A stretch of DNA of 64,000 bases from contig CALINO010000013.1 of the NCBI GenBank assembly GCA_938045295.1, positions 62,001 to 126,000 of the forward strand. The letters are read 5' to 3'. The stretch comes from an uncultured Arenicella sp. Lineage in GTDB: Bacteria; Pseudomonadota; Gammaproteobacteria; Arenicellales; Arenicellaceae. The translations under genes and the position numbers were made by a program. The notes beneath the pieces were generated by a model. That model was not told where the DNA came from. It saw only the letters and a program-made list of their open reading frames with translations, and searched no databases. Below are positions 26,560 through 44,597 of this stretch, piece after piece; positions within the stretch are counted from its first letter, which is position 1; each line of letters starts with the position of its first letter.

Positions 26560-26678
26560 TACTTTAGTCAGTGTTATTTTCTAATCAGATAGCTTTACAT
26601 AATGCCTAAACGTTTCTTGGTTGATCATCGGCCATATCCTTTTAACTTGCATTAAGACGAGAACCAGGACGCACAATC

Positions 26679-28958: not shown

Positions 28959-29152
28959 TGGCGTGTTACGTTAAATTGGCCAGTCGAGTGTCAGAGCGCT
29001 GGCAAAGTTTTGATCGGGGCTTGAAAGGTCTTCTAATAATGCCTATTTGAAGGCCTTATGATCAAGACCCTCTAGCCCTTTATTAGAAAAAAACTATATA
29101 CTTGTTGAATATTAGAACGGTAAGTTAAACACCGCACCACATCTGGCTTTAA

Positions 29153-29794
29153 ATGAACAAACACACCATTCTTTGTATGTTTTCCGGCGGCATTGATTCT
29201 TCGGGGGTATTGCATTCGTTGGTCACAGACCCGGCGTTTCGAGACAGAGAACTCATTGTTCACCACATTATTCTGCAAAATCGAGAAAATCGTGCCAAAG
29301 CGGAGATGGATTCCGTCACCGCTATTATCAAGCATTACCAAGAACAGCACCCTGAGCGTCCGTTCACTTATACACAGAGCGTTTTCAATACGATGGGGTT
29401 TGCTCCACTGCAAGCCAATCGGTTTCCGTTTGATATGGATGTGTGTGCCTTCACAGCGGCCAATATCGCCGTTGCGAGAAAAGACGTGCGCCAAATTGCC
29501 ATGGGGCGCACCAAAACCGATGTGGACTCTGGCGGTCAAAATTTTCAAAAACGCATGGAACGCGCGCAAAATGTATTTCGAGCGGTTTACTCATTGGAAA
29601 CTGAGACAGTACCCGATTATATTTTCCCCGTTATTAATATGACTAAGCAGGCTATTTGGGAAATGCTGCCCGAGCCAGTGCAAAACGCATCTTGGTACTG
29701 TCGGCAACCTCAATACAGTGAAGACGGATTGGCACACCCTTGTAAACAGTGCATTACTTGCAAGGAAGTCCAAGAATTTATCGAGCATGCCTGA
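29153..29794 (+). CDS. QueC-like PP-loop ATPase
   Basis: A 213-aa cytosolic protein with an N-terminal PP-loop (FSGGIDSSGVLH) that would activate a substrate through ATP hydrolysis to AMP. The C-terminus has a Cys cluster (WYCRQPQY and HPCKQCITC) like the zinc site of QueC, which makes 7-cyano-7-deazaguanine. The central part differs strongly from QueC: it reads FDMDVCAFTAANIAVARKDV and AMGRTKTD. A specialised QueC relative or another amidating PP-loop enzyme is therefore possible. The stop overlaps the methyltransferase start by 8 bp. Confidence 0.72.
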   Translation: MNKHTILCMFSGGIDSSGVLHSLVTDPAFRDRELIVHHIILQNRENRAKAEMDSVTAIIKHYQEQHPERPFTYTQSVFNTMGFAPLQANRFPFDMDVCAFTAANIAVARKDVRQIAMGRTKTDVDSGGQNFQKRMERAQNVFRAVYSLETETVPDYIFPVINMTKQAIWEMLPEPVQNASWYCRQPQYSEDGLAHPCKQCITCKEVQEFIEHA

Positions 29795-30521
29795 CAAATT
29801 TTACGCCGAGATATTTGCGCAAAACGGAAACTCGTATCATCAAGCGATGCAAACTTGGCCTCAGGCACGCGATCAAGAGTTCAATACAGCCCTAGCATCA
29901 CTGAACTTGGCACAAGGCGCACATGTCTTAGATGTGCCCGCCGGTGGTGGCTACTTACAGCGCTATTTGTCAGACTCTCATCATTACCATGGTTTTGACT
30001 TTAGTGGCGGGTTTGATGCGGCTCACAACATTGTCGAAAATTGTTCTGAAACCAAGATCGATATTGCCGACAGCAGTATGGATGCGGCCCTTTGCCTGGC
30101 ATCGCTGCACCACATCGAAAACCGAAGCGAGTTTTACCAGGAGGTAAGGCGCACTCTGAAACCTAATGGCGTGTTTCTAATTGCGGATGTGGTTGCCGGC
30201 TCACCGCAAGATGGTTTTCTAAACACCTTTGTTAACCAGTGGAATAGCCTAGGGCACGAAGGCGTGTTCATTGATCTTGAGCGTGATCAAGAAGCCCTTG
30301 TTAACGCTGGCTTTAGCTGTGATTATTCGGTGCAACACTACCATTGGCAATTTCGCAGTTCAGCCGAAGCCTTAGAATACTTTCGTTTATTATTCACGCT
30401 CGATCGCCAACCGTCAGACGCATTACTGACCAAGGCGATCACACAGTTGGGCGAAAAAAAGACCAGCGCCGCTTATTGCGTACGCTGGTCTTTGGGCTTT
30501 ATTAAAGCCGTAAAACGATAA
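29787..30521 (+). CDS. Class I SAM-dependent methyltransferase
   Basis: A 244-aa cytosolic protein. VLDVPAGGGYLQRYL is a motif I glycine-rich loop, GFDFSGGFDAAH contains the acidic motif II, and AALCLASLHHIENRSEFYQEV is motif IV, as in small-molecule methyltransferases of the Methyltransf_11 type. The start ATG 29787 lies inside the QueC-like gene (8-bp overlap), so the two proteins are probably made in step. The substrate is unknown. The gene ends 27 bp before the stop of the converging beta-helix gene. Confidence 0.82.
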   Translation: MPDKFYAEIFAQNGNSYHQAMQTWPQARDQEFNTALASLNLAQGAHVLDVPAGGGYLQRYLSDSHHYHGFDFSGGFDAAHNIVENCSETKIDIADSSMDAALCLASLHHIENRSEFYQEVRRTLKPNGVFLIADVVAGSPQDGFLNTFVNQWNSLGHEGVFIDLERDQEALVNAGFSCDYSVQHYHWQFRSSAEALEYFRLLFTLDRQPSDALLTKAITQLGEKKTSAAYCVRWSLGFIKAVKR

Positions 30522-30548
30522 TGGTTTACTAATACGCTGCTTAATACA

Positions 30549-33500
30549 CTACAAACAGAAAGTAACCACCTTGCCGTTGGCGGCTTTTACTACGAAACAC
30601 GTTGTTTCTTCATATTCCACCGACCCAATGTCGCAAGCGCCATCACTGCGTGGAAAACCACGCTGATCACGAGTAATAGGGGTGATAAACCCACCATCAC
30701 AAAAGGATTGCTCGCCACCATTGATTGCCGGGCTGCCATCAACCAAAATGTGGGTTTGCGTTGTTCCCCCATTAGCTGTTAGCGGGCCAATAATTCGGCT
30801 GAGTGCTGTTGCCGAAGGGTTGGGATTGCCCATGGCGTCTAATGAGGTTGCAATGGTGCTGTTATTCAAGGTCAACGAATTGACTATATTAGAATAAATC
30901 GATTGGGAGTAGTTAAGCGCGCTGGAGCCAATCAAGCTGCCAGCGGTGTAATTGCCAACCTGACTGCCCGCAGTTAACGTACTGCTGGAGCGATAGAAAG
31001 ACCGAAACATAAGGTCTTGCCCATAGGCCGGAAGAGCGGCTCCAGCACTTCCAGTGCCTTTACGATTGCCCGAGACAATTGAGTTTACTAGGGCTAAGAA
31101 CGAATCTTGGTCATAAGAATTGTTTTCGCCACCGCTGGTAAGTCGTTGAATATTGATGCCGCCGCCGTATTCATCAGCAACATTGTTCGACAACGTGGAA
31201 TTAAACAAAAAGGCGGAGCCATTATTCAGGCCAATGCCACCCCCGGTTCTGGAGCTCTGATTGCCTGAAATGGTTGAGTTTCTGACCACGGTTAACGCGC
31301 CGCGCCCAATATAAAGACCACCTGCTCGTTGGCCAACGTCATAAACTGAAAGATTACCATCAACGGTATCGGTGGAGATGTTTCCTGAAATCGTACTGTC
31401 GGCAATAACGCCTAATTCTCTTCCTGTGACTCTAAGCCCACCAACAGAACGAGTGCCTTCCGCCGAATTTCCACTAATGGTGGTTTTCGAAATAGTAAAA
31501 TGGGTATTTGAAAGGCTCACACCACCAGCGCGCCGGCCACTATTGCCGGTGATGAGCATTGATTGCATGACTAAACGGCCACCGAATGCACTCAAGCCGC
31601 CGCCGCTGTATTGCGAGCCATTGGCTACAGTGAAGTTGTTGAGGTACAAATGCGCATTTGAAGCCCTAAGTACGGGGTGTTCACCACCGCCATCAACTCG
31701 CACTGCGTTTGTACCAGGGCCTTGAATAGTGACCGCCGCATTAATGCGTGGTAAGCGTGCCGTCAATGAAATGGTGTTGCGTGCTCCAGCGGGGAACACA
31801 CTGGGGTCAAAACCAATAGTCGTAATATCCGCCGAACCAGTACACGTGGCCGCCGCTCTTGGTTGGTATAGAGAACCTTCACCACCTTCGCCGCCTTCAC
31901 CGCCGGAAGTAAGGAGTAACGCGTCTCGTAATGAACAATCGGCCGTTGTTCTGTTAATGTCGTCAGACACAGCATCAACCAATATGCTGGTCTCTACCGC
32001 TTCGGTAGCCCCGATATCACACACACCAGCGCCACGTGTTAGGCCTCGTTGATCGGTGTTGTTGATTGGCGAACTGGTGCAAATGGTGACATTGCCCGCT
32101 TCAAGTAATGGGCTGTTAAATACAGGAGTGTGGTAAGGGCCTGACCTGAGCCGCAACGTTCTTGAATAGTTACCACTACCGTATTTGCCGCCAGGGAAAG
32201 CGCCTATCTCGAAGCTCTGCGATTGAGATTGATTAGAATTGCGTAAACGGCTTAGGCCGGCATTACCATCCGCGGGCTGCCCGCAAGTATCATCTTCGAA
32301 AAAGTTTGCACTGCCAGAGGTGATGGTTGCTCCTCCTTCATTAGAGGTGGCGCACAGAACTCGGCCTGGTAAGCTTGGCAGGCCTGCGTAAGCTTGCCCA
32401 TACTCGCCGCCATAACGAAAACCCTCGCCACCAAACGCACCAACGGTGTTGTTCAGAGTTATTTGGCCTTCATTTGCCGCGTATAAAATTGCACCTGGCT
32501 GAGGCGAGGCTGAACCGGAGGTTTCAGGAATGCCTTCGCCGCCGACCAAGGTAGAGTTAGTTATGATCAGAGAGCCATAAACGCTCGTGACCCCGCCGCC
32601 ATTAGCGGCTAAATTTTTACTGATCGTACTGTTAGAGATGGTGTGTGTGTTATCGGAAAAAAGAGCGATTGCGCCACCGACGCCTGAAATTGTTTGGGTA
32701 CCGCTTGAGGTAGTCACAACACGGTTAGAGATCAGTGAGGTGTCTGCAACATCGAGTTGACCATTGCCGAAGCCAGAGAAAACGGCGCCACCAAAGACTC
32801 CAGCCTGGTTATATTTAAAGTGAGCATCGGCAATCGATATATCACCGTATTTGCTTGAGATTGCGCCGCCCAACCCATTGGTGGCTCGGTTTGAAGAAAA
32901 CTCTCCGCCTTGTACGGTCAAGCTCGCGGCACCCGTACCCGTACCGTTGCCGGCTCCTAGATACACGCCACCACCGGACTGCTGGGCGCTGTTGCTGCTT
33001 AAACGACTGTCAGTCAAGGTGACACTTGTGCCGCGGCTGGTGTAAACCCCGCCCCCTTGATTGGTGGCCGTATTTCGGTTTAGCCGAGAGCGGTAAATGG
33101 CCAACTGCGCACCGTCATTTAATGCAATCGCGCCGCCATTATTGGCTCTATTGGTAGATAAATAACTGTAGTTAATATTAACTTGAGCGCTTGAGCCAGT
33201 GGCATACACCGCTCCCCCTTTTCCGGTTGCTTCTGTTGCCACTCTATTGTTAGTAAGCGTGCTGCTATTGAGCGTTAAGGTGCCACCGTCCACAAACACG
33301 CCAGCGCCATTTTCGCCACCAACCGATAACTCACCACCTTGCACCGAAATATCATTGAGTGTTAATGAGCTGCCTGACGCAACGCGAAATAAGCGAAATT
33401 CTTCTTCCCCTATGCGTGAAATTTGGCCTGGAGCCTCGTTTGAGGTGCCACCGGCAATGGTTTTGCCCTCAATCGTAATGTTCGAGGTGATATTGAACGC

Positions 33501-33767
33501 GGTTGCCCCGGAGGCTAAGAAGTATGATGGTGAGGTTAGCACTGCACTTTGGCTGTGGAGCCTAACCACATCATCACCACTGCCGGCACCACATTGCCCT
33601 GTCGCCGTATCAGTGTTGGCCGATACAATCGCGTCTTGCAGTGTGCAATTTAGTGCGGGGTTTGTGCCATTAACTGTGATGACGGCTGCTTTGGCAGCGC
33701 CCATTGTTAATGCTTGACCAACAGCTAATGCGACGCAGCTTTTCTGGAAACCATTTAATGGAGGCAT
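30549..33767 (-). CDS. Large secreted right-handed beta-helix protein (CSLREA/choice-of-anchor Q type)
   Basis: A 1072-aa exported protein. An N-terminal signal (about residues 1-28, LAVGQALTMGAAKAA) leads into two similar halves. Each begins with a cysteine-containing segment (NCTLQDAIVSANTD near residue 40, DCSLRDALLL near residue 610). Both halves then carry repeats such as SGNSAEG or NRVATEATGKGG rich in G, S, N and T (beta-helix rungs) and close with DIGATE or DIGSVEYEE. A GGEGGEGGEG linker lies at about residue 625. It resembles polymorphic outer membrane and parallel beta-helix repeat proteins. No autotransporter barrel is visible. Role unknown, possibly adhesion or polysaccharide binding. 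Confidence 0.8.
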   Translation of the reverse strand: MPPLNGFQKSCVALAVGQALTMGAAKAAVITVNGTNPALNCTLQDAIVSANTDTATGQCGAGSGDDVVRLHSQSAVLTSPSYFLASGATAFNITSNITIEGKTIAGGTSNEAPGQISRIGEEEFRLFRVASGSSLTLNDISVQGGELSVGGENGAGVFVDGGTLTLNSSTLTNNRVATEATGKGGAVYATGSSAQVNINYSYLSTNRANNGGAIALNDGAQLAIYRSRLNRNTATNQGGGVYTSRGTSVTLTDSRLSSNSAQQSGGGVYLGAGNGTGTGAASLTVQGGEFSSNRATNGLGGAISSKYGDISIADAHFKYNQAGVFGGAVFSGFGNGQLDVADTSLISNRVVTTSSGTQTISGVGGAIALFSDNTHTISNSTISKNLAANGGGVTSVYGSLIITNSTLVGGEGIPETSGSASPQPGAILYAANEGQITLNNTVGAFGGEGFRYGGEYGQAYAGLPSLPGRVLCATSNEGGATITSGSANFFEDDTCGQPADGNAGLSRLRNSNQSQSQSFEIGAFPGGKYGSGNYSRTLRLRSGPYHTPVFNSPLLEAGNVTICTSSPINNTDQRGLTRGAGVCDIGATEAVETSILVDAVSDDINRTTADCSLRDALLLTSGGEGGEGGEGSLYQPRAAATCTGSADITTIGFDPSVFPAGARNTISLTARLPRINAAVTIQGPGTNAVRVDGGGEHPVLRASNAHLYLNNFTVANGSQYSGGGLSAFGGRLVMQSMLITGNSGRRAGGVSLSNTHFTISKTTISGNSAEGTRSVGGLRVTGRELGVIADSTISGNISTDTVDGNLSVYDVGQRAGGLYIGRGALTVVRNSTISGNQSSRTGGGIGLNNGSAFLFNSTLSNNVADEYGGGINIQRLTSGGENNSYDQDSFLALVNSIVSGNRKGTGSAGAALPAYGQDLMFRSFYRSSSTLTAGSQVGNYTAGSLIGSSALNYSQSIYSNIVNSLTLNNSTIATSLDAMGNPNPSATALSRIIGPLTANGGTTQTHILVDGSPAINGGEQSFCDGGFITPITRDQRGFPRSDGACDIGSVEYEETTCFVVKAANGKVVTFCL

Positions 33768-33878
33768 GTTCGTTAACCTATTTCTTATTTTTACCCTTAA
33801 TTAACATAAAGTAACATTTGTGTGCTGTGAACAAAACAAACTTTAGCCCGAAAGATGGCTTAAAATCAGCCTGCGGCG

Positions 33879-34433
33879 CTAGCTCTGGACAAATTGAACG
33901 CGCGCAAAGTCAAAAAGCCACACATCCTGCCCGGCGAACTCACCAACATACCGATACCCAAGGTTGCTGAAGAGCTTGCGCGTACCCGTTCGAGCAAGTT
34001 TTCTGTTTTCATTGACATTAACCACACCCAGTGGCCCATAATTAGACAGTTCGTTTTTGGCAAAGTAGAGGGTCAAGGCCGTTGCGGTGACCATCAATCG
34101 AGACCCGCGAAATTCTGGACTAATGAACATTCGATAGAAATAGTAATCTTGGCTCTCAGAGCCAATCTTGTCAACGTATAAGGTATTTACACCAATCAGT
34201 TTGCCAGTGAGCTTTTCAGTAATGTAATAGCAAACCTGTTCACTGCGTTCCCATGCCGCTTGTTCTGAAGTGATCACCCGATTTTGCAACCAAAGGTCTA
34301 CACAGGCTTGGCGTTGAACGTCATCAATTTTTTTATAAACGTTTTCCAAACAAAACGTTGCTGTTTCAAACTTGACGATATCGTCTTTCGAAAAGGGAAA
34401 TAGTGCTGAAGGTGTTTGTATGTGTGTAATCAA
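33879..34433 (-). CDS. GNAT-like acetyltransferase
   Basis: A 184-aa soluble protein of the GNAT fold type. The segment YYFYRMFISPEFRGSRLMVTATAL matches the acetyl-CoA-binding beta4-alpha3 region in outline, but the usual R/Q-x-x-G-x-G/A motif is degenerate (FRGSRLM). NENRKLARTGTRKLFSNLGYRYVGEFAGQDVWLF is typical of the C-terminal half. The only start available is TTG at 34433, and no ribosome-binding site precedes it. The N-terminus is therefore the least certain part. Substrate unknown. Confidence 0.55.
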   Translation of the reverse strand: MITHIQTPSALFPFSKDDIVKFETATFCLENVYKKIDDVQRQACVDLWLQNRVITSEQAAWERSEQVCYYITEKLTGKLIGVNTLYVDKIGSESQDYYFYRMFISPEFRGSRLMVTATALTLYFAKNELSNYGPLGVVNVNENRKLARTGTRKLFSNLGYRYVGEFAGQDVWLFDFARVQFVQS

Positions 34434-34850
34434 GAAACTGTTCTTTAGTGTTTGTTCTCTAATATTTGTTCTCTAGTATTCGTCGTGGTTCGCATAAGCC
34501 GTAACAACAATATTTATTGGAGCATCCCGTTTTTATTGATGATCAAGAAAAACTATCAAGAGAATTTATATTATTACGGTCAAGTTTTTCCATGCCACCA
34601 GCATTCAGCATTGCAAATCTTTCAAACCATTAATCAAAGCAGTATAAGCGCAAAACTGAGAGCCAACAAAAAATGTAAGACGCCATGCTTTTTAAGGTTA
34701 GCAGTCCAGCGCGCCACGGCTAAGAGTTTAATAAGGGTTTAAATACTGCGTTTATAAGGTAAGATAGCGTGTTTGGTGCACGGCCGGCTTGGCTGTCTTG
34801 TTAGTTATTGTTTTAACCGTTCAATTTACCGCGCAGTTCGCTCACGCTTC
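34434..34850. other. Intergenic region, 417 bp, no convincing gene
   Basis: AT-richer than its surroundings. The short duplication TTTGTTCTCTA occurs twice within 34450-34480. The 96-codon plus-strand ORF at 34452-34742 has no ribosome-binding site and a composition unlike the genes around it, so it is not called. The region presumably holds the promoter of the DUF3348-DUF802 operon, but no clear hexamers are picked out. Confidence 0.5.
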
Positions 34851-35606
34851 ATGCCTCAAATCCCATTGTCAACAGTGCTGGAACGTTCACGTTTGGTGAG
34901 CTTGTTGACGGACTTGTCGGCCAGCAAATTAAGCTCAGCGGAGTACAATTTGGCTGAACGCTTGGGGCACTTAGTTGGTTTGTCGGGGTCAATTACTTTG
35001 GCCAATGGGCTGCGCAAATTGCCTTATGAAGCTGGGCGCTCATTATTGGACGATGCGGCGGTATTGCATGGCGAAGTATTGGATTCGCGCGAGCGCATGA
35101 TCAATGTGATTGCGAGCAGTTTTAACGCCGAGGCCGACATTCATATTAAAGTGCCCAGTGCCACCGGCGGGCTTCGCCCCGAAGCGTTGCAAACCTATGA
35201 GCCGTATCAGCGCTTTTACACCGCGCATCAGGTTGAAATGGCCGTAGGTGTGAGTAATTTAAGGGCGCGCGTGCGAGCCGTTATGTCTGGTTTCTGTGTT
35301 GAGTTACACCAACTCGCTGAGCTGGATAAAACTTTGGACGAGAGTTTGGCGGTGCACACACGAAAGTTGTTTAATGTGATACCTAAATTATTAGAGCAAC
35401 GATTTAAATCGTTGTTGCAGGCGCATCGGCAAGACATGAATGGGAACGTGGATAACGACCTTGAAAACTGGCTTGATTCCGGTGGCTGGTTAGACCTTTT
35501 TTATCGAGATATGCGCGAGCTATTGCTGGCCGAATTTGATGTGCGTTTGCAGCCTGTATTGGGCTTGCTTGAAGCGTTGAATGAACAAACAGATACTTCA
35601 GAATGA
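34851..35606 (+). CDS. DUF3348 family protein, first gene of a stator-like operon
   Basis: A 251-aa soluble, helix-rich protein matching DUF3348 in outline: N-terminal PLSTVLERSRLVSLLTDLSAS, a conserved ADIHIKVPSATGG region, and YEPYQRFYTAHQVEMAVGVSNLRARVR. No signal peptide or membrane helix. ATG 34851 is preferred; the frame is open to 34773. The stop overlaps the following ATG (ATGA), and the genes downstream encode a MotA-like and a MotB-like membrane protein. It is therefore a candidate cytoplasmic partner. Function unknown. Confidence 0.75.
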   Translation: MPQIPLSTVLERSRLVSLLTDLSASKLSSAEYNLAERLGHLVGLSGSITLANGLRKLPYEAGRSLLDDAAVLHGEVLDSRERMINVIASSFNAEADIHIKVPSATGGLRPEALQTYEPYQRFYTAHQVEMAVGVSNLRARVRAVMSGFCVELHQLAELDKTLDESLAVHTRKLFNVIPKLLEQRFKSLLQAHRQDMNGNVDNDLENWLDSGGWLDLFYRDMRELLLAEFDVRLQPVLGLLEALNEQTDTSE

Positions 35607-37495
35607 CAAAAATTCTTTTTAATGTGGCGTTTGCCATCGGTGTGTTGGCAATCATTTGGGTTGGCCGAATTTTTCTGGGCGACGACTCATTGGGTTTCTG
35701 GGTAACCTTACTCATTGGTGCGGTATACGTGCTGGGGGTGTGGGAGTTATTGCGTTATCGACGAGCCACAGTCAGTCTTGATACGTCGCTTTCGGAGTTA
35801 TCGGCGCCGCCGGCTGATTTCAAACAATGGGTGTCGACCTTAGAGCCGCGCTTTCAAGACATTGTGCGTTTGCGTATGGATGGTGCTCGCAACCCTCTGC
35901 CCGCACCGGTACTGACGCCGTATTTGGTTGGCTTGTTGGTTATGTTGGGCTTGTTAGGCACCTTTATTGGTATGGTTGATACCTTAAAAGGGGCCGTAGT
36001 GGCCTTGCAGGGCAGCAGTGAACTTGAAGCCATTCGCGCCGGCCTTGCTGCCCCGATTGAAGGTTTAGGCTTGGCGTTTGGTACTTCTATTGCCGGCGTG
36101 GCGGCCTCGGCCATGCTGGGGTTGTTGTCAACATTAAGCCGCCGAGAACGCATGCACGTGAGTCAGTTGCTAGATAACAAGTTGGCCAATGAACTGCATT
36201 CGTTTACCGCTAATCACCAACAACAAAGTGCCTTTTTGGCCATGCAGCAACAAGCGCAAGCGTTGCCAGAGTTGGTGCAAAAAATGGGTGACTTGGCCAA
36301 CAACCTTGAAGCCATGGGTGAGCGAGTCAACCAAGGCTTGCTGGCAAATCAAACCCAGTTTCAAGACACCGTCATACAGCAATATCAGGCGTTAAATGAG
36401 TCTGTGGACAGCACGCTTAAAACCAGCTTGTTGGAAAGTTCTCAATTGCTCAGTTCAAGCATTCAGCCCATGGCGCAAGAAACACTCGAACGGCTGAACG
36501 AGTCGGCCTTGAGCGCGCAGCAACAGATGGCGAAGCTCAACCAAGAGCAACTCGGTGTGATCAATGAATCTGTGCAGAGCAATAATGAATTGGTGCGTGA
36601 AGCACTCGATGCTGGCATAAATCAGCAGCGCCAATCAACCGATGCGCTATTGGCCAGTGTTAATGACGCGGTTAATAATACGGTCAGTGAATTGAAAACC
36701 AACAGCGCTGGCTTATTGGAAAGCCACGGTGTGGCGAATGAGCAGTTTTTGCAGGCTCAGCATGGCCAGGCTGAAGAGTTTGTGGGGCGCATTCGTGATG
36801 AATTGTCTCGCTTGCGAGAAGAGGAAAGCGAGCGTGCGAATACAGCGATTGAACGCTTGAGTGATTTACAGGCAACGGTCAGTAACCATTTACTGGCCTT
36901 AGGTCAGGGGCTTGAAGAACCAATGCAACGGCTGATTGAAACGGCGTCGCAAACGCCCAAGGCGGCGGCCGAAGTCATTGAAAAGTTACGTGGTGAAATC
37001 AGTAAAAATCTTGAACGCGACAATGACTTGTTAAGTGAGCGCACGCGTTTGATGACGCAATTAGAAAGCGTGTCTGAATCATTAGAGCAGAGTTCGAATA
37101 GCCAACGCGATGCCATTGATAGTTTGGTCAAAAGCTCGGCGGATACGCTCAGTAAAGTGGGCGAGCAGTTTGGCACAAGCCTGCAACAAGAGTCGTCTAA
37201 ATTGACCGGTGCGGTTGAGTACTTTGCCAGCAGCAGCGCTGAAATGGCCAGTTTGGGCGATGCCTTTAATGCGGCCGTGACGTTGTTTAGCGAATCAAAC
37301 AGCCAGTTGATTGAAAGCTTTACTCGCATTGAATCGACTCTAGAGCAATCTAATAGCCGCAGCGATGAACAGCTTGCTTATTACGTTGCTCAAGCGCGTG
37401 ACATCATTGACCATAGCCTGCTTGCGCACAAAGAAGTGATTGACACCTTGCGCGCTCAGCAGCGGGTGCAAGCGGTGGCTAAAGAGGTGAGTTAA
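35603..37495 (+). CDS. DUF802 protein, MotA/TolQ-like channel with a long cytoplasmic tail
   Basis: A 630-aa membrane protein. Four hydrophobic segments lie at about 3-21, 30-50, 103-125 and 150-177. The last two resemble the MotA/TolQ/ExbB core (LGLLGTFIGMVDTLKGAV and EGLGLAFGTSIAGVAASAMLGLLST). Residues about 180-620 are almost entirely polar and helical, with coiled-coil character (many Q, E, S, N), so a long cytoplasmic tail is expected. In MotA-type complexes these subunits form a pentamer around a dimer of the MotB-like subunit. The gene overlaps both neighbours (ATGA, TAATG). The family itself is uncharacterised. Confidence 0.8.
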   Translation: MTKILFNVAFAIGVLAIIWVGRIFLGDDSLGFWVTLLIGAVYVLGVWELLRYRRATVSLDTSLSELSAPPADFKQWVSTLEPRFQDIVRLRMDGARNPLPAPVLTPYLVGLLVMLGLLGTFIGMVDTLKGAVVALQGSSELEAIRAGLAAPIEGLGLAFGTSIAGVAASAMLGLLSTLSRRERMHVSQLLDNKLANELHSFTANHQQQSAFLAMQQQAQALPELVQKMGDLANNLEAMGERVNQGLLANQTQFQDTVIQQYQALNESVDSTLKTSLLESSQLLSSSIQPMAQETLERLNESALSAQQQMAKLNQEQLGVINESVQSNNELVREALDAGINQQRQSTDALLASVNDAVNNTVSELKTNSAGLLESHGVANEQFLQAQHGQAEEFVGRIRDELSRLREEESERANTAIERLSDLQATVSNHLLALGQGLEEPMQRLIETASQTPKAAAEVIEKLRGEISKNLERDNDLLSERTRLMTQLESVSESLEQSSNSQRDAIDSLVKSSADTLSKVGEQFGTSLQQESSKLTGAVEYFASSSAEMASLGDAFNAAVTLFSESNSQLIESFTRIESTLEQSNSRSDEQLAYYVAQARDIIDHSLLAHKEVIDTLRAQQRVQAVAKEVS

Positions 37496-38196
37496 TGCAC
37501 GAGTTAGACGATAACGCCTCGCACGCACCGCCAATTTGGGCCATCTTTGGCGACTTAATGTCGGGCTTGGTGGGCGTGTTTGTGCTGTTGCTGATTTGGG
37601 CTTTGGGGTTTCAATTGGAGTTGGCGCAATCACTGAAAGCGGAAACCGCCAAACGCCAGATTGAAGAGCAGCGCCGCATGGCATTAGAACAAGCATTGGC
37701 CGACCCTTTGCGTAATGGGCGCGTCACCTTAGAGAACGGCCGTATTGCGATCAGTGGCAGCGTATTATTCGCGGTTAATTCCGCGCAACTGCAACAAGAG
37801 GGGCGAACATTATTGAGCAGTTTAGTGAGCCCATTGAAAGTGTTCTTAGGCGAGCGCGAGCAAATGTTGATGGTCAGTGGTTTTACCGACAATAAACCCA
37901 TTCGTGGTGATAATCGCAGTTTTTCAGATAACTGGGATTTGTCGGCGCAACGCGCCCTTACGGTTACACGAGTGTTGATTGAAGAGGGCATGCCAGCGGA
38001 CATGGTTTTTGCCGCTGCCTTTGGCGAGCAAAGCCCGGTGGCGAGTAATGACAGCTCACAAGGGCGCGCGAAGAACCGGCGAGTGGAAATGGCGCCGGTG
38101 CCTAAAAACACTCAAAACGAAAAGAAACCAGCTAAAAAAGCAGAGTTTACCGGCTCGAAGATAAACAACGTTGAGTTGAGTGGTGATGAGTCCTGA
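37495..38196 (+). CDS. OmpA-family MotB/ZorB-like protein
   Basis: A 233-aa membrane protein. A single helix (about residues 14-35, WAIFGDLMSGLVGVFVLLLIW) starts with Asp20, in the position of the proton-carrying Asp of MotB. A coiled coil follows (residues about 38-66), then a peptidoglycan-binding OmpA domain (about 75-205) with VLFAVNSAQL, GFTDN, DLSAQRALTVTRVL and KNRRVEM. A basic tail ends the protein. It is the predicted partner of the DUF802 protein. The coupling TAATG upstream and the 11-bp overlap downstream fit fixed stoichiometry. Confidence 0.85.
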   Translation: MHELDDNASHAPPIWAIFGDLMSGLVGVFVLLLIWALGFQLELAQSLKAETAKRQIEEQRRMALEQALADPLRNGRVTLENGRIAISGSVLFAVNSAQLQQEGRTLLSSLVSPLKVFLGEREQMLMVSGFTDNKPIRGDNRSFSDNWDLSAQRALTVTRVLIEEGMPADMVFAAAFGEQSPVASNDSSQGRAKNRRVEMAPVPKNTQNEKKPAKKAEFTGSKINNVELSGDES

Positions 38197-38953
38197 ATTA
38201 GTGGCAATATCGGCAAAGCTGAACGCGGATTATGTGGGCAATTTTGACCCCGTGCGGTTCGCTTTTATTCAGAGTTTAATCAGTAAATTAAGCGACTCGA
38301 GTCACACTGCTAACCGCCATTTACTGGAAAAGGCTTGTACTCACGCGCAACAATATTTGGACGACTTGCAAGCGCATCAAGCGTTGGTAAGCCCGCTGTT
38401 AGAGAAGATTGAAAGCAAGGCGTCAGCACGTTTTGATCATGCTCAACGTTTATTCCAGCAAAATCAGTTTAAGCCGCTTGAGCGTTTGTATGAATTGCTG
38501 TGCATTCAGCAAGTGCGAGATAAGAATTTGGCGGTGTTGAGTGACTTTAATCGCCAAATTAGTCAAGAACCTGAGCCAGAGCAGGGCGATGCCGCGCCGT
38601 TGTCATTAGACGAAGTGCTGTATCAGCAAGAAGAGCAAGCGCGCACGGCCGCCGGGTACACGCCGCCGGTTAAAAATGATGGCCGGGGCGATCAGCTGGA
38701 ACTGCAGTCGGTACGCATTTTTCGCGAGTCAATGAAATACTTTGGTATCGACCGAGTGATTGAGCGGGCGCTCAGCGAATGCCCAGCAAACCCGGGGCCG
38801 CATAACCCGCATATGCTGGCAATCAAGTCACTCACGTTGATGAATGATCTGTCGCCTCAATATTTGCGGCGTATGGCCAATTACTTGGAAACCATGATTT
38901 GGTTAGAAAAAAACGCAGGGAAGTTAAACAGTACTCAAGTGAATGGCGTTTAA
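38186..38953 (+). CDS. DUF2894 family protein, last gene of the stator-like operon
   Basis: A 255-aa soluble helical protein. Conserved pieces include FAFIQSLISKL, LYELLCIQQVRDKNL and a C-terminal RIFRESMKYFGIDRVIERALSECPANPGPHNPHMLAIKSL, which matches the DUF2894 outline. No signal peptide or membrane helix is present. ATG 38186 is preferred to GTG 38180, though both lie inside the OmpA-family gene. Its fixed place behind DUF3348, DUF802 and OmpA suggests a shared complex. Biochemical function unknown. Confidence 0.75.
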   Translation: MSPELVAISAKLNADYVGNFDPVRFAFIQSLISKLSDSSHTANRHLLEKACTHAQQYLDDLQAHQALVSPLLEKIESKASARFDHAQRLFQQNQFKPLERLYELLCIQQVRDKNLAVLSDFNRQISQEPEPEQGDAAPLSLDEVLYQQEEQARTAAGYTPPVKNDGRGDQLELQSVRIFRESMKYFGIDRVIERALSECPANPGPHNPHMLAIKSLTLMNDLSPQYLRRMANYLETMIWLEKNAGKLNSTQVNGV

Positions 38954-38962
38954 CTAGTGGGG

Positions 38963-40705
38963 TTAACTTAACTCAGCCGCGTTCATTGCCTCTAACTGCT
39001 CTCGAGCTTTTATCGGGGTGCTGGCTTTGATTACTCGATTGCCTAACTTTTTCACTTGCTGGGTGTCGGTGGCCAATATTTTTTCTTTTACGTCCAACAC
39101 ATAGTTCGCGTCCATACTGAAGTTGCGTAAGCCGAGCGCTAACAAGATGCGCGTGTAACGCACATTGCCAGCCATTTCGCCGCACAAGGACACCGGAATA
39201 TTTGCCCGTTCACCGGCTTTGATAACTTGGCTAATAAGTTTTAGAACCGCCGGGTGAATGGGGTCGTATAAATAGTTAACCGCGTCATCCACGCGGTCGA
39301 TGGCTAAAGTGTATTGAATTAAATCATTAGTGCCGATCGACAAGAAGTCTAACTTTTTGGCCAGCACATCGGCCATGATGGCCGCGGCGGGCACTTCAAT
39401 CATGCCGCCGACTTTGATGCGCGAATCAAAGTCGATGTTCTTTGCTTTGAGTTCCGCTTTGGTTTGTTTGATTAAGTTGAGTACTTGATCTATTTCATCC
39501 ACATTGCTGATCATTGGAATCATGATCGACACTTTGCCGAATGCCGATGCTCTTAATATGGCACGCAGTTGAGGTTTGAATACTTCTACGTGATTCAGGC
39601 ACAGTCGAACAGCGCGTAAGCCTAAGGGCGACTCGCTGGACTTTTTGTTTGGGTAGTTGAAATCTAACCGTTTATCCCCGCCAATATCTAAGGTGCGTAT
39701 CACCACGGGGCCGTCTATCGACGACACAATTTTTTTATAGGCACGAAACTGTTCAGCTTCAGTCGGTGCTTTGTCGCGATTCATAAACAAGTATTCTGTG
39801 CGGTATAAGCCAATGCCCGCGGCATTGGACTTTTTAACCGCACTGATTTCTTTTGCTGTTTCCACGTTTGCCAGCAATTGAATGCGCTCGCCGTCTAAGG
39901 TTTTGCTCAGCCGGCGAGTGAGGGTTGCTAAGTGTTTTTCGCGTTGGCGAATTTTGCTTAAACGCTGCTTGTATTCTTTGAGTACGCGCTCGGTTGGGTT
40001 TACTAAAACAGTGCCACGCATGCCGTCGACCACCAACAGGTCATCGTCGGTAATGTACTTAGTGGCACCGTGCAAACCGACTACGGCGGGCATTTTTAAG
40101 CTGCGCGCGACAATCGCGGTGTGTGATATTTGCGAGCCTAAGTCAGTAACAAAAGAGACAATTTTTTGCTCTTTCACAAACATGGTTTCAGCCGGAGTTA
40201 AATCTCTGCTGACAACAATCTTGCCTTTCAAATCGTCATCATTGAGCTCATCAAGGCTGTGCGAAACAATGCTCATTAAGCTGCGCAACAAGCGGTTGGT
40301 GACGTGTTCTACGTCGGTCTTTTTAGCCCGTAAATAGGCGTCTTGCATTTGCTCAAAGACTTTAACCAAATTAGCCGATTGTTGAGTTAGTGCGTGTTCG
40401 GCATTCACCCTGTCAGAGCGAATGATCTTAATAGATTCATCGATTAACAGCGGATCGCTCAGCATGAGCATATGTGCTTCAATAAAGGCGCCACTTTCTT
40501 TAGGCGCGCTTTTTGGCAGACTGGTAAGCAGTGTCTGATACTTGGCTTTGGTGTTTTTTACCGCGTTGTGTAAGCGTTCAATTTCGGCATCAATGTCGGC
40601 TTTTTTGATTGGGTAGTGCGGTGTTTGTATATCGCTTTGGCGCAATACATAGGCTTGCCCGATTGCAATGCCTCTACCAATACCTGACCCAAATAAGCTT
40701 AACAT
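38963..40705 (-). CDS. Phosphotransferase system enzyme I
   Basis: A 580-aa cytosolic enzyme that passes phosphate from phosphoenolpyruvate to HPr. The phospho-His site is in GSQISHTAIVARSLKMPAVVG, the PEP-binding pieces are IRTLDIGGDKRLDF and the catalytic Cys-containing VSLCGEMAGN, with SIGTNDLIQYTLAIDR between them. It has no N-terminal GAF domain, unlike E. coli PtsP, so it is more like PtsI in build (E. coli EI 575 aa). ATG 40705 has AGGAG eight bases before it. No sugar permease is seen nearby, so it probably feeds the regulatory PTS. Confidence 0.93.
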   Translation of the reverse strand: MLSLFGSGIGRGIAIGQAYVLRQSDIQTPHYPIKKADIDAEIERLHNAVKNTKAKYQTLLTSLPKSAPKESGAFIEAHMLMLSDPLLIDESIKIIRSDRVNAEHALTQQSANLVKVFEQMQDAYLRAKKTDVEHVTNRLLRSLMSIVSHSLDELNDDDLKGKIVVSRDLTPAETMFVKEQKIVSFVTDLGSQISHTAIVARSLKMPAVVGLHGATKYITDDDLLVVDGMRGTVLVNPTERVLKEYKQRLSKIRQREKHLATLTRRLSKTLDGERIQLLANVETAKEISAVKKSNAAGIGLYRTEYLFMNRDKAPTEAEQFRAYKKIVSSIDGPVVIRTLDIGGDKRLDFNYPNKKSSESPLGLRAVRLCLNHVEVFKPQLRAILRASAFGKVSIMIPMISNVDEIDQVLNLIKQTKAELKAKNIDFDSRIKVGGMIEVPAAAIMADVLAKKLDFLSIGTNDLIQYTLAIDRVDDAVNYLYDPIHPAVLKLISQVIKAGERANIPVSLCGEMAGNVRYTRILLALGLRNFSMDANYVLDVKEKILATDTQQVKKLGNRVIKASTPIKAREQLEAMNAAELS

Positions 40706-40709
40706 TCGA

Positions 40710-40979
40710 TCACTCCTGTTCGTCGAAATAATTATTGATGAGATTGGCGATTGCCTCCATGGCTTCGGCTTCATCTTCACCGCTGGTGCGAACAGTCACA
40801 TTACTGCCTATCGAGGCGGCCAGCATCATCACTTGCATAATGCTTTTAGCATCGGCGTTTTGGCCGCCAAACTCTATTTCAACACGGCTTGCGTAAGCGC
40901 TGGCGGTATTCACCAGTTTGGCCGATGCTCTGGCGTGTAAGCCTAGTTTATTGATGATTTCGAGTTGTTGTTCTTGCAC
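40710..40979 (-). CDS. HPr-family phosphocarrier protein
   Basis: An 89-aa phosphocarrier of the PTS. His in GLHARASAKLV takes phosphate from enzyme I, and a Ser is kept in AKSIMQVMMLA at the position of HPr Ser46. The acidic C-terminus (EDEAEAMEAIANLI) is as in NPr/HPr proteins. It ends 4 bp before the enzyme I start and follows rapZ by 20 bp, so these genes are one unit. Likely targets are the PtsN protein of the same cluster. Confidence 0.92.
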   Translation of the reverse strand: MQEQQLEIINKLGLHARASAKLVNTASAYASRVEIEFGGQNADAKSIMQVMMLAASIGSNVTVRTSGEDEAEAMEAIANLINNYFDEQE

Positions 40980-40999
40980 GTTAATTTTTTAGCGCACTC

Positions 41000-41866
41000 T
41001 TATAACCGTAGCTCGCGGTGCCGAGCTAAGGTATGAATGCTGTTGTCAGTTTTAAAATGGTTTTTCAGGCGCTCAGTTAAATAAACCGAGCGGTGTTGGC
41101 CACCCGTGCAGCCAATACCAACCGTAATGTAGTTTCTGTTGTCATTCACGAAGTGTGGCAGCCATGTTTCAATGAATTGTTTGATGTCATTAAACATTTG
41201 GTTGCATAAGGCTTGGTCGCCGAGAAAGTCGATCACTGGCTGATCTAACCCGGTTTGCGGTTTTAATTCAGCGTGCCAATGCGGGTTGGGTAAGCAGCGC
41301 ACATCAAACACATAATCGGCGTCTGTGGGGCCACCGTACTTGAAGCCAAACGATTGAAATAATAACGTTAGGTCTTTTTCACTCGCCAATGCGGTTTCAT
41401 CACGAATGGTTTTGCGTAATTCGTGCGGTGTGGTGTCTGAGGTGTCTATTTCTCTGTTGGCGATGTTTTGCAGGTGTTCCAACAGTGCGCGTTCTTTATG
41501 AATGGCTTCGCGCAGTGAGGTGTTCTCATCGCTTAACGGGTGCTTACGGCGAGTCTCGCTGTAGCGTTTGAGTAATGTTTCGTCGTTGGCATCAAGAAAG
41601 ATGATGCGGGTTTCAACATTGAATGCTTTCAAGCTCTCGAAGCTCGACTCTATATCGCCAACAATGTCTTGATTGCGCGAGTCTATGCTAAAAGCACAAT
41701 TGTGTTCTTTGGTGTTATTGCCCAGTACTCGGGCGGCCATTTCCGGCACTAATGAGGCCGGCAGGTTGTCGATGCAATAAAAGCCTAAATCTTCCAGCAC
41801 CTGCAGGGCAATGGTTTTCCCTGAGCCAGATGTTCCGCTAACAATGAAAAACTTAGGCATGCTCAT
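41000..41866 (-). CDS. rapZ: RNase adapter protein RapZ
   Basis: A 288-aa protein with an N-terminal P-loop (SGTSGSGKTIALQVLEDLGFYCIDNLPASL) and the C-terminal GIGCTGGQHRSVYLTERL, both hallmarks of the RapZ/YvcJ family. In E. coli RapZ senses glucosamine-6-phosphate and guides RNase E to the sRNA GlmZ, setting GlmS levels. ATG 41866 (MSMPKFF) is used; an upstream TTG at 41887 would overlap ptsN. It is 10 bp downstream of ptsN, as in E. coli. Confidence 0.94.
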   Translation of the reverse strand: MSMPKFFIVSGTSGSGKTIALQVLEDLGFYCIDNLPASLVPEMAARVLGNNTKEHNCAFSIDSRNQDIVGDIESSFESLKAFNVETRIIFLDANDETLLKRYSETRRKHPLSDENTSLREAIHKERALLEHLQNIANREIDTSDTTPHELRKTIRDETALASEKDLTLLFQSFGFKYGGPTDADYVFDVRCLPNPHWHAELKPQTGLDQPVIDFLGDQALCNQMFNDIKQFIETWLPHFVNDNRNYITVGIGCTGGQHRSVYLTERLKNHFKTDNSIHTLARHRELRL

Positions 41867-41876
41867 GATTAGGTAT

Positions 41877-42350
41877 TCACTCCGCAACCCATTGGTCGAT
41901 CAAGTCGATGATTGCCGCGGGGCTGCTGGCTTGGGCTATGGCTTCTTTGTGAGCTTGATTTGACATCAGTTTTGCAATGTCGGCCAACAGATTGAGGTGT
42001 TCTTGGTTGGCCTCTTTGGGTACTAATAAACCGAAAGCCACGTCAACCGGTTGACGGTCTAAGCTGTCGTAGTCAACCGCCTCTTCGAGCGTGATAATGG
42101 CGACCACGGCATGGTCAATAAAGTCACAGCGAGAGTGCGGAATAGCAACGCCATTGCCAATGCCTGTGTTGCCGAGCTTTTCGCGTTCAAGCAGTAAATG
42201 GTAGATGTCTTTTTCTTTGACATCGTCACCTAGCCCTTGGGCTAACAGACCCGCCATGTTTTCCAATAGACGTTTCCGGCTACTAATAAGGCTTTGCACT
42301 TCAATTCTTTCGGTGCTTAAGCTGGTTACTAAAAAATTTGTTGTTTTCAT
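41877..42350 (-). CDS. ptsN: PTS IIA-Ntr nitrogen regulatory protein
   Basis: A 157-aa cytosolic EIIA protein that receives phosphate from the NPr/HPr chain and regulates potassium uptake, nitrogen and other functions. The phosphorylated His is in GNGVAIPHSRCDFIDH. EREKLGNTGIGNGVAIPH and DVAFGLLVPKEANQEHLNLLA are conserved. Start M (42350) is preferred since the upstream in-frame TTG is poorly supported. It is located between hpf and rapZ, as in the E. coli rpoN operon. Confidence 0.93.
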   Translation of the reverse strand: MKTTNFLVTSLSTERIEVQSLISSRKRLLENMAGLLAQGLGDDVKEKDIYHLLLEREKLGNTGIGNGVAIPHSRCDFIDHAVVAIITLEEAVDYDSLDRQPVDVAFGLLVPKEANQEHLNLLADIAKLMSNQAHKEAIAQASSPAAIIDLIDQWVAE

Positions 42351-42472
42351 TTCACTAAAAAATCCACCATTACTGTGGTGGTGAGTATTCAATATGGCTA
42401 CTCGCCTAGGTAACGGTGGATTATAGGTTTTATTTACTGGCCATGACTGCGCATGGCTGATCGAACGTAATA

Positions 42473-42817
42473 CTACGACTCGCTAATTTCATTAACAAAG
42501 ACTTGATCCTTTAATGCACCCCCGGCTCGGTGATGATCGGTAATCTTTTCTTTGTGTTTGCGAACTTGAGAGTCGAGTTTATCAGTTAAATCATCAATTG
42601 TGGCGTACATATTCTCTGAATCAGCATGCGCGTGCATGGTGACGCCTTTGGCGTTAATGGTGGCTTCCGCCTTGTGATGAATTTTTTCCACGTGTAAGAC
42701 TACATCAATGCTGTTCACATGATCGAAATGTCGTTCGATGCGTTGCATTTTTTCCCCGATGTAGTGCTTCATTGAGTCGGTTAAATCGATTTGATGTCCA
42801 GAAATCGTTAACTGCAT
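42473..42817 (-). CDS. hpf: Ribosome hibernation-promoting factor
   Basis: A 114-aa protein of the HPF/YfiA (sigma-54 modulation) family that binds the 30S subunit and drives ribosomes into inactive forms in stationary phase. MQLTISGHQIDLTDSMKHYIGEKM, with VVLHVEKIHHKAEATINAKG, is the family core. The length is that of short HPF, slightly longer than E. coli HPF (95 aa). It is located 106 bp downstream of rpoN, its usual neighbour. Confidence 0.93.
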   Translation of the reverse strand: MQLTISGHQIDLTDSMKHYIGEKMQRIERHFDHVNSIDVVLHVEKIHHKAEATINAKGVTMHAHADSENMYATIDDLTDKLDSQVRKHKEKITDHHRAGGALKDQVFVNEISES

Positions 42818-42923
42818 AGGTAGGTTGCTCCTGTTATGGCATTGCGCCGTTACGTATACACATCGTGTGTTGAGCAGACAAGCATACTGAAGTGGCGTGC
42901 GAATAATGTATGCGCACCTCGCT

Positions 42924-44432
42924 TTAGCTTACCAGCGATTTTCGTTGGCTGGATGGGGCTATTTGCATGCTCTCGCGGTATTTAGCCACGGTTCGTCTGG
43001 CAACGATGTGCCCTTGTTGTTCCAGTTCTTTAGCAATTTTATTATCGCTGAGCGGTTTTGCTTTGGGTTCAGCGTCGATCATCTTTTTAATCAGTGATCG
43101 AATCGCTGTTGAGCTGGATGACGCGCCGTCGGTATTGTTGATGGCGCTAGAAAAAAAGTATTTAAGTTCAAACACTCCGCGTGGCGAATGCAGATACTTA
43201 CCGGCCGTTGCTCGCGAAATGGTTGATTCATGCATCTCTATTGCATTGGCAACATCATGCAACACCATGGGTTGCATTGCCGCTTCTCCTTTTTCAAAAA
43301 AGCCTTGCTGTCGTTCTACTATGGTCTGAGCCACTAAAAGCAAGGTGTCATAGCGACTCATTAAGCCTTTAATAAAATCTTTGGCTTGCGCTAAATTATG
43401 CTGAATATAGTCATTACTTTGCTGGTCCAGCTTGGTCGATGACGTTAGCAATTTTGAATATGTGTCGTTAATTCTCAGTTTGTGGTAGTTGGTTGGGTTA
43501 ATGTGTGCGGCCCATACAGTGCCGACTTTCTTTACTATAACATCTGGTGAGATATAGTTTTCATTGTCTGGGCTGAATTGAGACGCCACCCTTGGGTTTA
43601 GCGAAGTAATAAGCGCCAGTGCATCAGACAATTGTGCCTCGGAAACCCCCAGCACTTTCTTTAGTTTACTCAAATTGTGCGCGCCAACCAAATCTAAATG
43701 TTGTTCAACAATGGTTTGCGCGAGGGTTAAGCCGTGAGTATTGGGTGAGTATTGCGCTAATAATAACGCTAAACGCTCTTGTAAATTTGTTGCGCCTACG
43801 CCAATTGGGTCTAAGGTTTTAATCAGGCTAAGAACCGCATTGACTTCATCGACTTCAATTTTGCTCAAGTCCGAGTCGACCTTCTCGTTAGCGATCGCGG
43901 CAATGTCTTGCAGATCAACTTTTAGGTAACCGTCATCATCCAAGCAATGCAAAATGGAGATGGCTATGTGTTGGTCTTGTTCTGAGAGAGTGGTCATTTT
44001 GACTTGCCACTCAAGGTGTTCAAATAAAGACTCTTGCTTTGCCACAAATTGCGCAAGCTCGGTGTCGCCCATATTGGCATTTGCGGTAATACTCAGAGCA
44101 TTGCTGCGCTGAGTTTCAAACGCTTCTTCCCAGTTTGATGATATGTCTTGTTCCGGTGCTAGCGTGTCTGTGCGCTCCATTTCAGCGCTTGGGTCAGAGG
44201 CTTCAGCGATGGGTTGAGGAATGTTGTTGTCCAGGGCTGGGCTTACCGTATTGATGGCCTCTTGATCAATGCTCTCAGTTTCCGCGCGTTCGAGCAATGG
44301 GTTGTCATCCAGCGCTTGCTGAATTTCTAACTCAAGATCTAAAGAAGGAAGCTGAAGCAAACGCAAAGACTGCTTCAATTGAGGGGTTAGCGTCAGCTGT
44401 TGCGACAGTTTTAAATGCAGGGTTTGCTTCAT
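42924..44432 (-). CDS. rpoN: RNA polymerase sigma-54 factor
   Basis: A 502-aa alternative sigma factor. N-terminal activator-interaction region I (LHLKLSQQLTLTPQLKQSLRLLQ), an acidic region II (about residues 50-110), the core-binding domain (about 120-300), and a C-terminal RpoN box (VARRTVAKYRE, about 475-485) are all visible. RpoN needs AAA+ activators and recognises -24/-12 promoters. ATG 44432 is used; upstream TTG is disfavoured. It lies 165 bp after lptB on the same strand. Confidence 0.97.
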   Translation of the reverse strand: MKQTLHLKLSQQLTLTPQLKQSLRLLQLPSLDLELEIQQALDDNPLLERAETESIDQEAINTVSPALDNNIPQPIAEASDPSAEMERTDTLAPEQDISSNWEEAFETQRSNALSITANANMGDTELAQFVAKQESLFEHLEWQVKMTTLSEQDQHIAISILHCLDDDGYLKVDLQDIAAIANEKVDSDLSKIEVDEVNAVLSLIKTLDPIGVGATNLQERLALLLAQYSPNTHGLTLAQTIVEQHLDLVGAHNLSKLKKVLGVSEAQLSDALALITSLNPRVASQFSPDNENYISPDVIVKKVGTVWAAHINPTNYHKLRINDTYSKLLTSSTKLDQQSNDYIQHNLAQAKDFIKGLMSRYDTLLLVAQTIVERQQGFFEKGEAAMQPMVLHDVANAIEMHESTISRATAGKYLHSPRGVFELKYFFSSAINNTDGASSSSTAIRSLIKKMIDAEPKAKPLSDNKIAKELEQQGHIVARRTVAKYRESMQIAPSSQRKSLVS

Positions 44433-44597
44433 GCGCAATAATATTGATGGCCGCTATTGTTTAATAAAGGTGCAACACGGCAAATCAAGTTATACAAAAA
44501 CACACTCATGCAATTATTCTATGCCTAAGGCTGTGATTTTGCCATCGTATTTTATTAATCAATGGCGTGTTTTGCGCTGTGTGCGTGGTGTTTTTGC

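What the first reader, a model, noticed from the sequence alone, without database searches (positions are those of the whole stretch)
34851..38953. DUF3348-DUF802-OmpA-DUF2894: a four-gene stator-like operon of unknown function
All four genes overlap their neighbours. The DUF802 protein has a MotA/TolQ-type membrane core and about 450 residues of cytoplasmic coiled coil. The OmpA-family protein has one helix with an Asp at its start (D20, IFGDLMSG) and a peptidoglycan-binding domain, as in MotB and in ZorB of Zorya defence systems, whose ZorA also has a long tail. Two soluble proteins of uncharacterised families flank the pair. The combination predicts an ion-driven rotary or force-transmitting complex anchored to the cell wall, with a long intracellular shaft and two cytosolic partners.
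Basis: partly seen in the sequence, partly recalled or inferred. Interest (0 to 1): 0.8.

Follow-up and report, generated by a model that had tools for sequence, protein, structure and literature searches.

The report
Zorya type III phage-defence motor operon
The four genes make up a known kind of bacterial anti-phage machine (Zorya type III), a wall-anchored, ion-driven membrane motor with a long shaft and two helper proteins of unknown action, which in some bacterial genera looks like a lasting part of the genome rather than a passing defence.

Summary
All four genes match PADLOC's Zorya type III models: DUF3348 (E 2e-60), ZorA3 (3e-213), ZorB3 (2e-104), DUF2894 (2e-31). Type III was named in 2021, and one relative protected E. 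coli from phages (PMC8565338, passages). All three junctions overlap. The four genes stand together in 87 of 92 loci; the other five are cut by contig ends. The ZorB aspartate D20 is conserved in 91 of 91.

New detail: the ZorA shaft varies in length but ends in a near-invariant tip, present in 30 of 30 complete ZorA found without using that motif. I read it as the docking site of the soluble proteins, which are predicted all-helical, with no significant fold match and no nuclease found.

Distribution is odd: DUF3348 is in 7 of 18 genomes of the window's genus, at changing sites, but in 20 of 20 genomes of another genus, at one site in the five loci compared, and 40 of 45 of a third. Type III may be core machinery there. 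Verdict: new member of a known kind.

The parts
34851..35606 (+). DUF3348 protein (ZorF in the text of PMC8565338, ZorG in PADLOC-DB); soluble, all-helical, 251 aa
   Evidence: Pfam PF11828 6.5e-55; PADLOC PDLC00657 2.2e-60; AlphaFold2 mean pLDDT 88.1, pTM 0.84, helices only
35603..37495 (+). ZorA (MotA/TolQ-type core plus long cytoplasmic tail), 630 aa
   Evidence: PADLOC ZorA3 2.6e-213; profile of residues 1-230 matches the 696-aa chain 8vvn_C, E 2.1e-5; hydrophobic segments
37358..37411 (+). ZorA tail-tip motif, residues 586-603 (RSDEQLAYYVAQARDIID)
   Evidence: 30 of 30 complete ZorA in loci found by DUF3348 alone (26 by pattern, 4 more with one E-to-D change seen)
37495..38196 (+). ZorB: one membrane helix starting at Asp20, then OmpA-family domain, 233 aa
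   Evidence: PADLOC ZorB3 1.7e-104; Pfam OmpA 1.1e-19; D20 91 of 91
38180..38953 (+). DUF2894 protein (ZorG in the text of PMC8565338, ZorF in PADLOC-DB); soluble, all-helical, 257 aa
   Evidence: Pfam PF11445 4e-28; PADLOC PDLC00652 1.9e-31; AlphaFold2 mean pLDDT 85.3, pTM 0.53

Best explanation
This is a Zorya type III anti-phage operon. Inferred mechanism: ZorA and ZorB form a wall-anchored ion-driven motor in the inner membrane (five ZorA around two ZorB, as reported for types I and II). Phage entry disturbs the wall; the OmpA-type domains of ZorB grip peptidoglycan; ions pass at ZorB Asp20 and the ZorA Thr/Ser ring; ZorA turns and its tail turns with it. The signal leaves at the near-invariant ZorA tail tip, where I propose the DUF3348 and/or DUF2894 protein docks and is released or switched. 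Neither looks like a nuclease, so the effect is probably not direct DNA cutting by the operon's own proteins. Shown here: family membership, operon, conserved ion site, conserved tip, helical partners. Inferred: 5:2 assembly, rotation, tip docking, trigger. Published for one relative, not for this operon: phage protection in E. coli.
For: All four proteins hit the type III models best. Four genes together in 87 of 92 loci, the five exceptions at contig ends, and in 20 of 20 loci chosen from four other genera, one of them already among the 92. ZorB D20, W15, F18, L21 and M22 are 91 of 91; ZorA T120, T127, S162 and S169 are 92 of 92 and T161 is 90 of 92. The only PDB chain matched by the ZorA core profile at E <= 0.1 is 8vvn_C, a MotA/TolQ/ExbB protein of 696 aa, with T161-S162 aligned to a Thr-Ser pair; PMC11890865 gives 696 as the last residue of its type I ZorA rod (passage). 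Tip motif in 30 of 30 complete ZorA found without it. No nuclease seen by Pfam, NCBIfam, PADLOC or fold. In the window's genus the operon is patchy and changes site, as expected of a defence system. Trigger model: published proposals for types I and II (passages).
Against: No defence island seen: of 10 other window proteins scanned with PADLOC none is a convincing defence gene. ZorA has no match in 50,697 phage records; it is in 27 of 72,556 plasmid records, and the 20 listed are 0.37-3.5 Mb long. In one genus DUF3348 is in 20 of 20 genomes, at one site in the five loci compared, and in another in 40 of 45, which is unusual for a defence system. Phage protection rests on one plasmid-borne relative in E. 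coli (PMC8565338). No complex was modelled and no phage test exists for this operon.
Confidence: 0.7

Rival explanations
1. A core cellular machine: a wall-anchored motor that watches or repairs the envelope in the genera where it is fixed. Phage protection would be a side effect of sensing wall damage or of plasmid expression in E. coli.
For: 20 of 20 genomes in genus g308 and 40 of 45 in g122, one DUF3348 match in every holder; site conserved in g308 (upstream 6 of 6 pairs, downstream 10 of 10, five loci) and on one side in g122 (15 of 21, seven loci); pairwise dN/dS below 1 for every component in g308; ZorA in no phage record.
Against: A relative protects E. coli (PMC8565338); PMC11890865 calls the distribution of the three subtypes typical of anti-phage systems (passage); patchy in the window's genus, 7 of 18, with moving sites; no match in 362 of 370 genomes of the class sample; sites not shared in most pairs of g314, Variovorax, Ramlibacter, Accumulibacter or Marinobacter loci; soluble partners diverge much faster than a neighbouring gene, as an arms race would give.
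Confidence: 0.22
2. A flagellar or gliding stator variant (MotAB/PomAB-like) that drives motility.
For: ZorB matches MotB-family models and PDB MotB/PomB chains.
Against: Scores are far below the cut-offs of the MotB/MotD/MotS models listed (MotD 99 bits, cut-off 283, 25 of 40 families shown), while the dedicated ZorB3 model gives 346 bits. A 450-residue tail and two DUF partners are not stator parts (established knowledge).
Confidence: 0.03
3. A Zorya type I or II system whose effector genes were lost or lie elsewhere.
For: ZorA1/ZorA2 and ZorB1/ZorB2 models also match, more weakly.
Against: Type III models score far higher, DUF3348 and DUF2894 are with ZorAB in 87 of 92 loci, and no ZorC, ZorD or ZorE match arose among the four proteins or 10 other window proteins. 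The rest of the genome was not scanned for them.
Confidence: 0.05

Closest known systems
Zorya type III (Payne et al. 2021, PMC8565338; passages read)
   Same: Same four families in one operon with ZorA and ZorB in the middle; all four PADLOC models match.
   Different: No difference in parts found. A diverged copy: ZorA is 34-47% identical (best segment) to the 80 named relatives kept and 48-61% to four congeners.
Zorya types I and II (PMC11890865; abstract and passages read)
   Same: MotA-like ZorA with long tail, MotB-like ZorB with Asp and OmpA-type domain; core profile matches 8vvn_C.
   Different: No ZorC, ZorD or ZorE match; the two partner proteins are helical and not recognisable nucleases.
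MotAB/PomAB flagellar stators
   Same: Hydrophobic pattern, membrane aspartate, OmpA-type wall anchor.
   Different: Below the MotB/MotD model cut-offs listed; a long tail, which stators lack (established knowledge).

Membership tests
Zorya type III | zorA-zorB pair flanked by DUF3348 and DUF2894 genes | tested here: met
Zorya type III | Best match of all four proteins to the type III models rather than type I/II | tested here: met
   ZorA3 709 bits vs ZorA1 41; ZorB3 346 vs ZorB1 80
Zorya type III | Conserved ion-site Asp in the ZorB membrane helix | tested here: met
   D20 in 91 of 91; Asp in 30 of the 31 loci found by DUF3348 (12 of these also among the 92), the 31st being cut by a contig end
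Zorya type III | Peptidoglycan-binding (OmpA) domain in ZorB | tested here: met
   (sequence only; binding itself not tested)
Zorya type III | ZorA5B2 assembly with bundled tail | not testable with these tools
   no multimer prediction available; reported for types I and II in PMC11890865 (abstract)
Zorya type III | Protects against phage | not testable with these tools
   published for one relative in E. coli only (PMC8565338, passages)
Zorya type I/II | ZorC+ZorD or ZorE nuclease/helicase effector | tested here: not met
   (four operon proteins and 10 other window proteins; not the whole genome); DUF3348 and DUF2894 models have no PDB match at E <= 0.001
Flagellar stator MotAB | Reaches a MotB/MotD family cut-off | tested here: not met
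   (25 of 40 matching families shown): PRK09038 MotD 99.1 bits against 283; PRK08944, PRK07734, PRK06667, PRK08457, PRK09041 also below
DUF802 (PF05650) | Match to the Pfam model | tested here: not met
   no row at E <= 1; 0 of 1 genome, though the controls did not ring either
Accessory (mobile) defence system | Patchy presence and shifting site among related species | tested here: inconclusive
   met in the window's genus (7 of 18; flank sharing 0 of 10 and 1 of 10 pairs); not met in g308 (20 of 20; 6 of 6 and 10 of 10 pairs)

The most novel reading that the evidence does not exclude
Zorya type III is at root a core cellular motor of some proteobacterial genera: a peptidoglycan-anchored rotary sensor of wall damage whose variable-length shaft carries one near-invariant tip that drives two non-nuclease helical partners. 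Types I and II, or mobile type III copies, would be defence offshoots of it, and its anti-phage action would be one output of envelope surveillance.
Probability: 0.22. Interest if true: 0.78.

Novelty: new member of a known kind. Interest (0 to 1): 0.4.

Why it matters
In Zorya types I and II the motor is reported to recruit nucleases (passages), but here both partners are predicted helical proteins with no recognisable enzyme, so how a turning motor stops a phage is open for type III. The near-invariant shaft tip gives a direct mutational test. That DUF3348 is in every genome sampled of one genus and nearly all of another raises the question of whether a catalogued defence system also has a day job.

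Tried and rejected
Rejected: a novel system (PADLOC type III models match); flagellar stator (below cut-offs); a Pfam DUF802 match; a defence island around the operon (the strong matches of 24750-25640 are to kinase-type models such as mad6 and PD-T4-6, and the methyltransferase and QueC matches are weak); phage carriage (ZorA only, no match).

Led nowhere: Foldseek for DUF3348 against PDB and BFVD and for DUF2894 against PDB gave 282, 287 and 39 matches at E <= 10 and none at E <= 0.001; the best for DUF2894 is the N-terminal domain of Borrelia BB0323 (E 0.84, probability 0.75), too weak to use. Profile searches of PDB sequences gave borderline hits that I set aside as helical look-alikes: for DUF3348 the Aer2 transducer (E 0.0019) and CENP-K (0.0039); for DUF2894 the small type III export protein PscE (E 5e-4). 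ZorA as a single sequence found no PDB chain at E <= 0.01. A first neighbour-clustering script chose longest ORFs, which in GC-rich loci picks antisense frames; I replaced it with a translated flank comparison and with ORFs ranked by conservation (still with some antisense ORFs). Promoter and terminator scans were no better than shuffles.

Corrected on the way: the 80 named loci all hold the tail-tip search peptide and none of the other five, so their tip conservation is biased; I rely on loci found by DUF3348. In one search four of those seemed to lack the tip; one search shows that they carry it with one E-to-D change. One ZorB comparison (L185 with L188, 446 codons) is misanchored and was dropped.
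Full report
What is there. Four + strand genes at 34851-38953 overlap by 4, 1 and 17 bases. Pfam gives DUF3348, OmpA and DUF2894 for genes 1, 3 and 4, and no informative family for gene 2. PADLOC gives Zorya type III for all four: DUF3348 2.2e-60, ZorA3 2.6e-213, ZorB3 1.7e-104, DUF2894 1.9e-31. NCBIfam calls gene 3 the uncharacterised PRK09040 family (339 bits, cut-off 194) and gives gene 2 a weak ZorA match (2e-10, below cut-off). ZorA has six overlapping hydrophobic windows, merged here into four segments, and about 450 residues of tail; of seven periods tried, hydrophobic residues of the tail recur most strongly at 3.67 and hardly at 3.5, which suggests a hendecad-type coiled coil (inference). 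ZorB has one hydrophobic segment starting next to D20.

What is already known. I searched a held library of 5.39 million open papers. DUF802, DUF3348 and DUF2894 occur in two of them. PMC8565338 (passages) named Zorya type III from 6,401 gene pairs flanked by the two DUF genes, and reports that the cloned Stenotrophomonas nitritireducens operon lowers plaquing of at least one phage in E. coli. [quoted passage not shown] A Xylella survey (PMC9148166, passages) found only ZorA and ZorD homologues, poorly conserved. A review (PMC12904381, passages) gives the wall-pinching model for type I. In the listings of my other searches (listings only, some capped) I saw no title on the mechanism of type III or on type III as a core gene. 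The DUF3348 protein is ZorF in the text of PMC8565338 but ZorG in PADLOC-DB.

Conservation. I gathered 92 loci: 12 from whole genomes found by DUF3348 (the window's own included) and 80 named contigs found by ZorA, the best 80 of 575 candidates. All four genes were found in 87 of 92; the other five (L014, L018, L076, L080, L090) are cut by contig ends; in L050 the zorA and in L059 the zorB reading frame is split. ZorB D20 is 91 of 91 (the window's own copy is counted). ZorA T120, T127, S162 and S169 are 92 of 92 and T161 is 90 of 92; T161-S162 aligns to a Thr-Ser pair in 8vvn_C. PMC11890865 describes such a Ser/Thr ring around the ZorB Asp (passage).

The shaft tip. The distance from the motif just after the last membrane segment to the tip varies from 342 to 704 residues (69 of 92 loci scored), yet the tip, RSDEQLAYYVAQAR(E/D), hardly changes. 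Because all 80 named loci had been found through that very peptide, I tested the 31 loci found by DUF3348 alone (12 of the 92, and 19 new): one ZorA is cut by a contig end, and the other 30 of 30 carry the motif, four with a single E-to-D change and a few with other single changes. A near-invariant tip on a shaft of variable length is what a docking site would look like. That it docks DUF3348 or DUF2894 is inference.

The partners. AlphaFold2 models are helical throughout: DUF3348 mean pLDDT 88.1, pTM 0.84; DUF2894 85.3, pTM 0.53. Foldseek found no PDB match with E <= 0.001 for either and none in BFVD for DUF3348; weak and borderline hits are listed under Tried and rejected. No nuclease family matched by sequence. 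DUF3348 has invariant R138, L155, D159, E228, R232 and P235 in 59 sequences; DUF2894 has invariant G206, P207 and N209 in 65.

Distribution, first side. In the window's genus DUF3348 is in 7 of 18 genomes, 6 of the 11 that are at least 90% complete with at most 5% contamination; an eighth, G010, has only a ZorB fragment. All seven hits in the order are of that genus (7 of 109 genomes, 31 genera). In the class sample it is in 8 of 370, three of them of that genus. The five genus copies with enough sequence form one clade in a quick tree whose support values I did not examine, but sit in different places: flanking DNA is shared in 0 of 10 pairs upstream and 1 of 10 downstream. G000 and G006 both carry it between yicC and the ptsI-like gene; in G013 the gene after ptsI is another one, and the operon lies about 14 kb away. 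Identity to four congeners is 75-84% for ZorB but 48-61% for ZorA, 44-55% for DUF3348 and 32-44% for DUF2894, against 69-82% for the ptsI-like gene in the same four.

Distribution, second side. In genus g122 DUF3348 is in 40 of 45 genomes, and in genus g308 in 20 of 20, including two of 3.5 and 3.7 Mb. In wider draws it is in 152 of 296 genomes and 17 of 44 genera of one family, and in 97 of 300 genomes and 41 of 115 genera of another. In 20 loci that I chose from holders in four genera (7 of g122, 5 of g308, 4 of g316, 4 of g314) all four genes are present. Pairs that share flanking DNA, upstream and downstream: g308 6 of 6 and 10 of 10; g316 6 of 6 and 3 of 6; g122 15 of 21 and 3 of 21; Marinobacter 31 of 78 and 31 of 78; g314 1 of 6 and 1 of 6; Variovorax 1 of 10 and 1 of 10; Ramlibacter 0 of 10 and 0 of 10; Accumulibacter 0 of 6 and 1 of 6. 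So a fixed site is clear in g308 only and partial elsewhere. In g308 the neighbour downstream looks like a transketolase (name recalled from its sequence, not from a call). Pairwise dN/dS in g308 (10 pairs) is 0.36-0.55 for DUF3348, 0.34-0.53 for DUF2894, 0.21-0.46 for ZorA, 0.13-0.26 for ZorB (9 pairs, one dropped) and 0.09-0.17 for that neighbour: all parts are kept, and the soluble ones change fastest.

Reading. The first side fits a defence system, the second a core gene. Both can hold if a useful defence became fixed in some lineages, which I prefer because of the published protection and the fast change of the soluble partners. The rival, an envelope machine whose anti-phage effect is secondary, is not excluded. 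ZorA has no match in 50,697 phage records; 27 of 72,556 plasmid records have it, and the 20 listed are 0.37-3.5 Mb long.

Limits. No complex could be modelled; no test bears on phage protection by this operon; DUF3348 stands in for the operon in prevalence counts; completeness limits differ between searches; each species is represented by one genome.

Noticed in passing
window 38963-44438: A nitrogen-PTS type block (ptsI-like, HPr/NPr, RapZ, PtsN-like EIIA, RpoN) follows the operon on the opposite strand; the operon ends 9 bases from the ptsI-like stop codon.
   Followed up: partly
window 30549-33767: A 1072-aa repeat-rich protein with a choice-of-anchor Q domain lies upstream on the other strand.
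   Followed up: no
window 26679-28958: A DUF4915/TIGR03032 protein fused to TPR repeats, 759 aa.
   Followed up: no
window 29153-30521: A protein with a weak QueC match and an overlapping methyltransferase; possibly a small natural-product or modification pair.
   Followed up: no
L017 (G006) and window 25699-38963: The yicC to ptsI interval holds a Zorya III operon in two genomes with otherwise different gene content, so it may be a variable site.
   Followed up: partly
L046: A contig filed under an Akkermansia MAG carries a Zorya III operon that groups with L038, a Comamonadaceae MAG; probably a binning error.
   Followed up: no
literature and PADLOC-DB: ZorF and ZorG are swapped between the text of PMC8565338 and PADLOC-DB 2.0.0.
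   Followed up: yes
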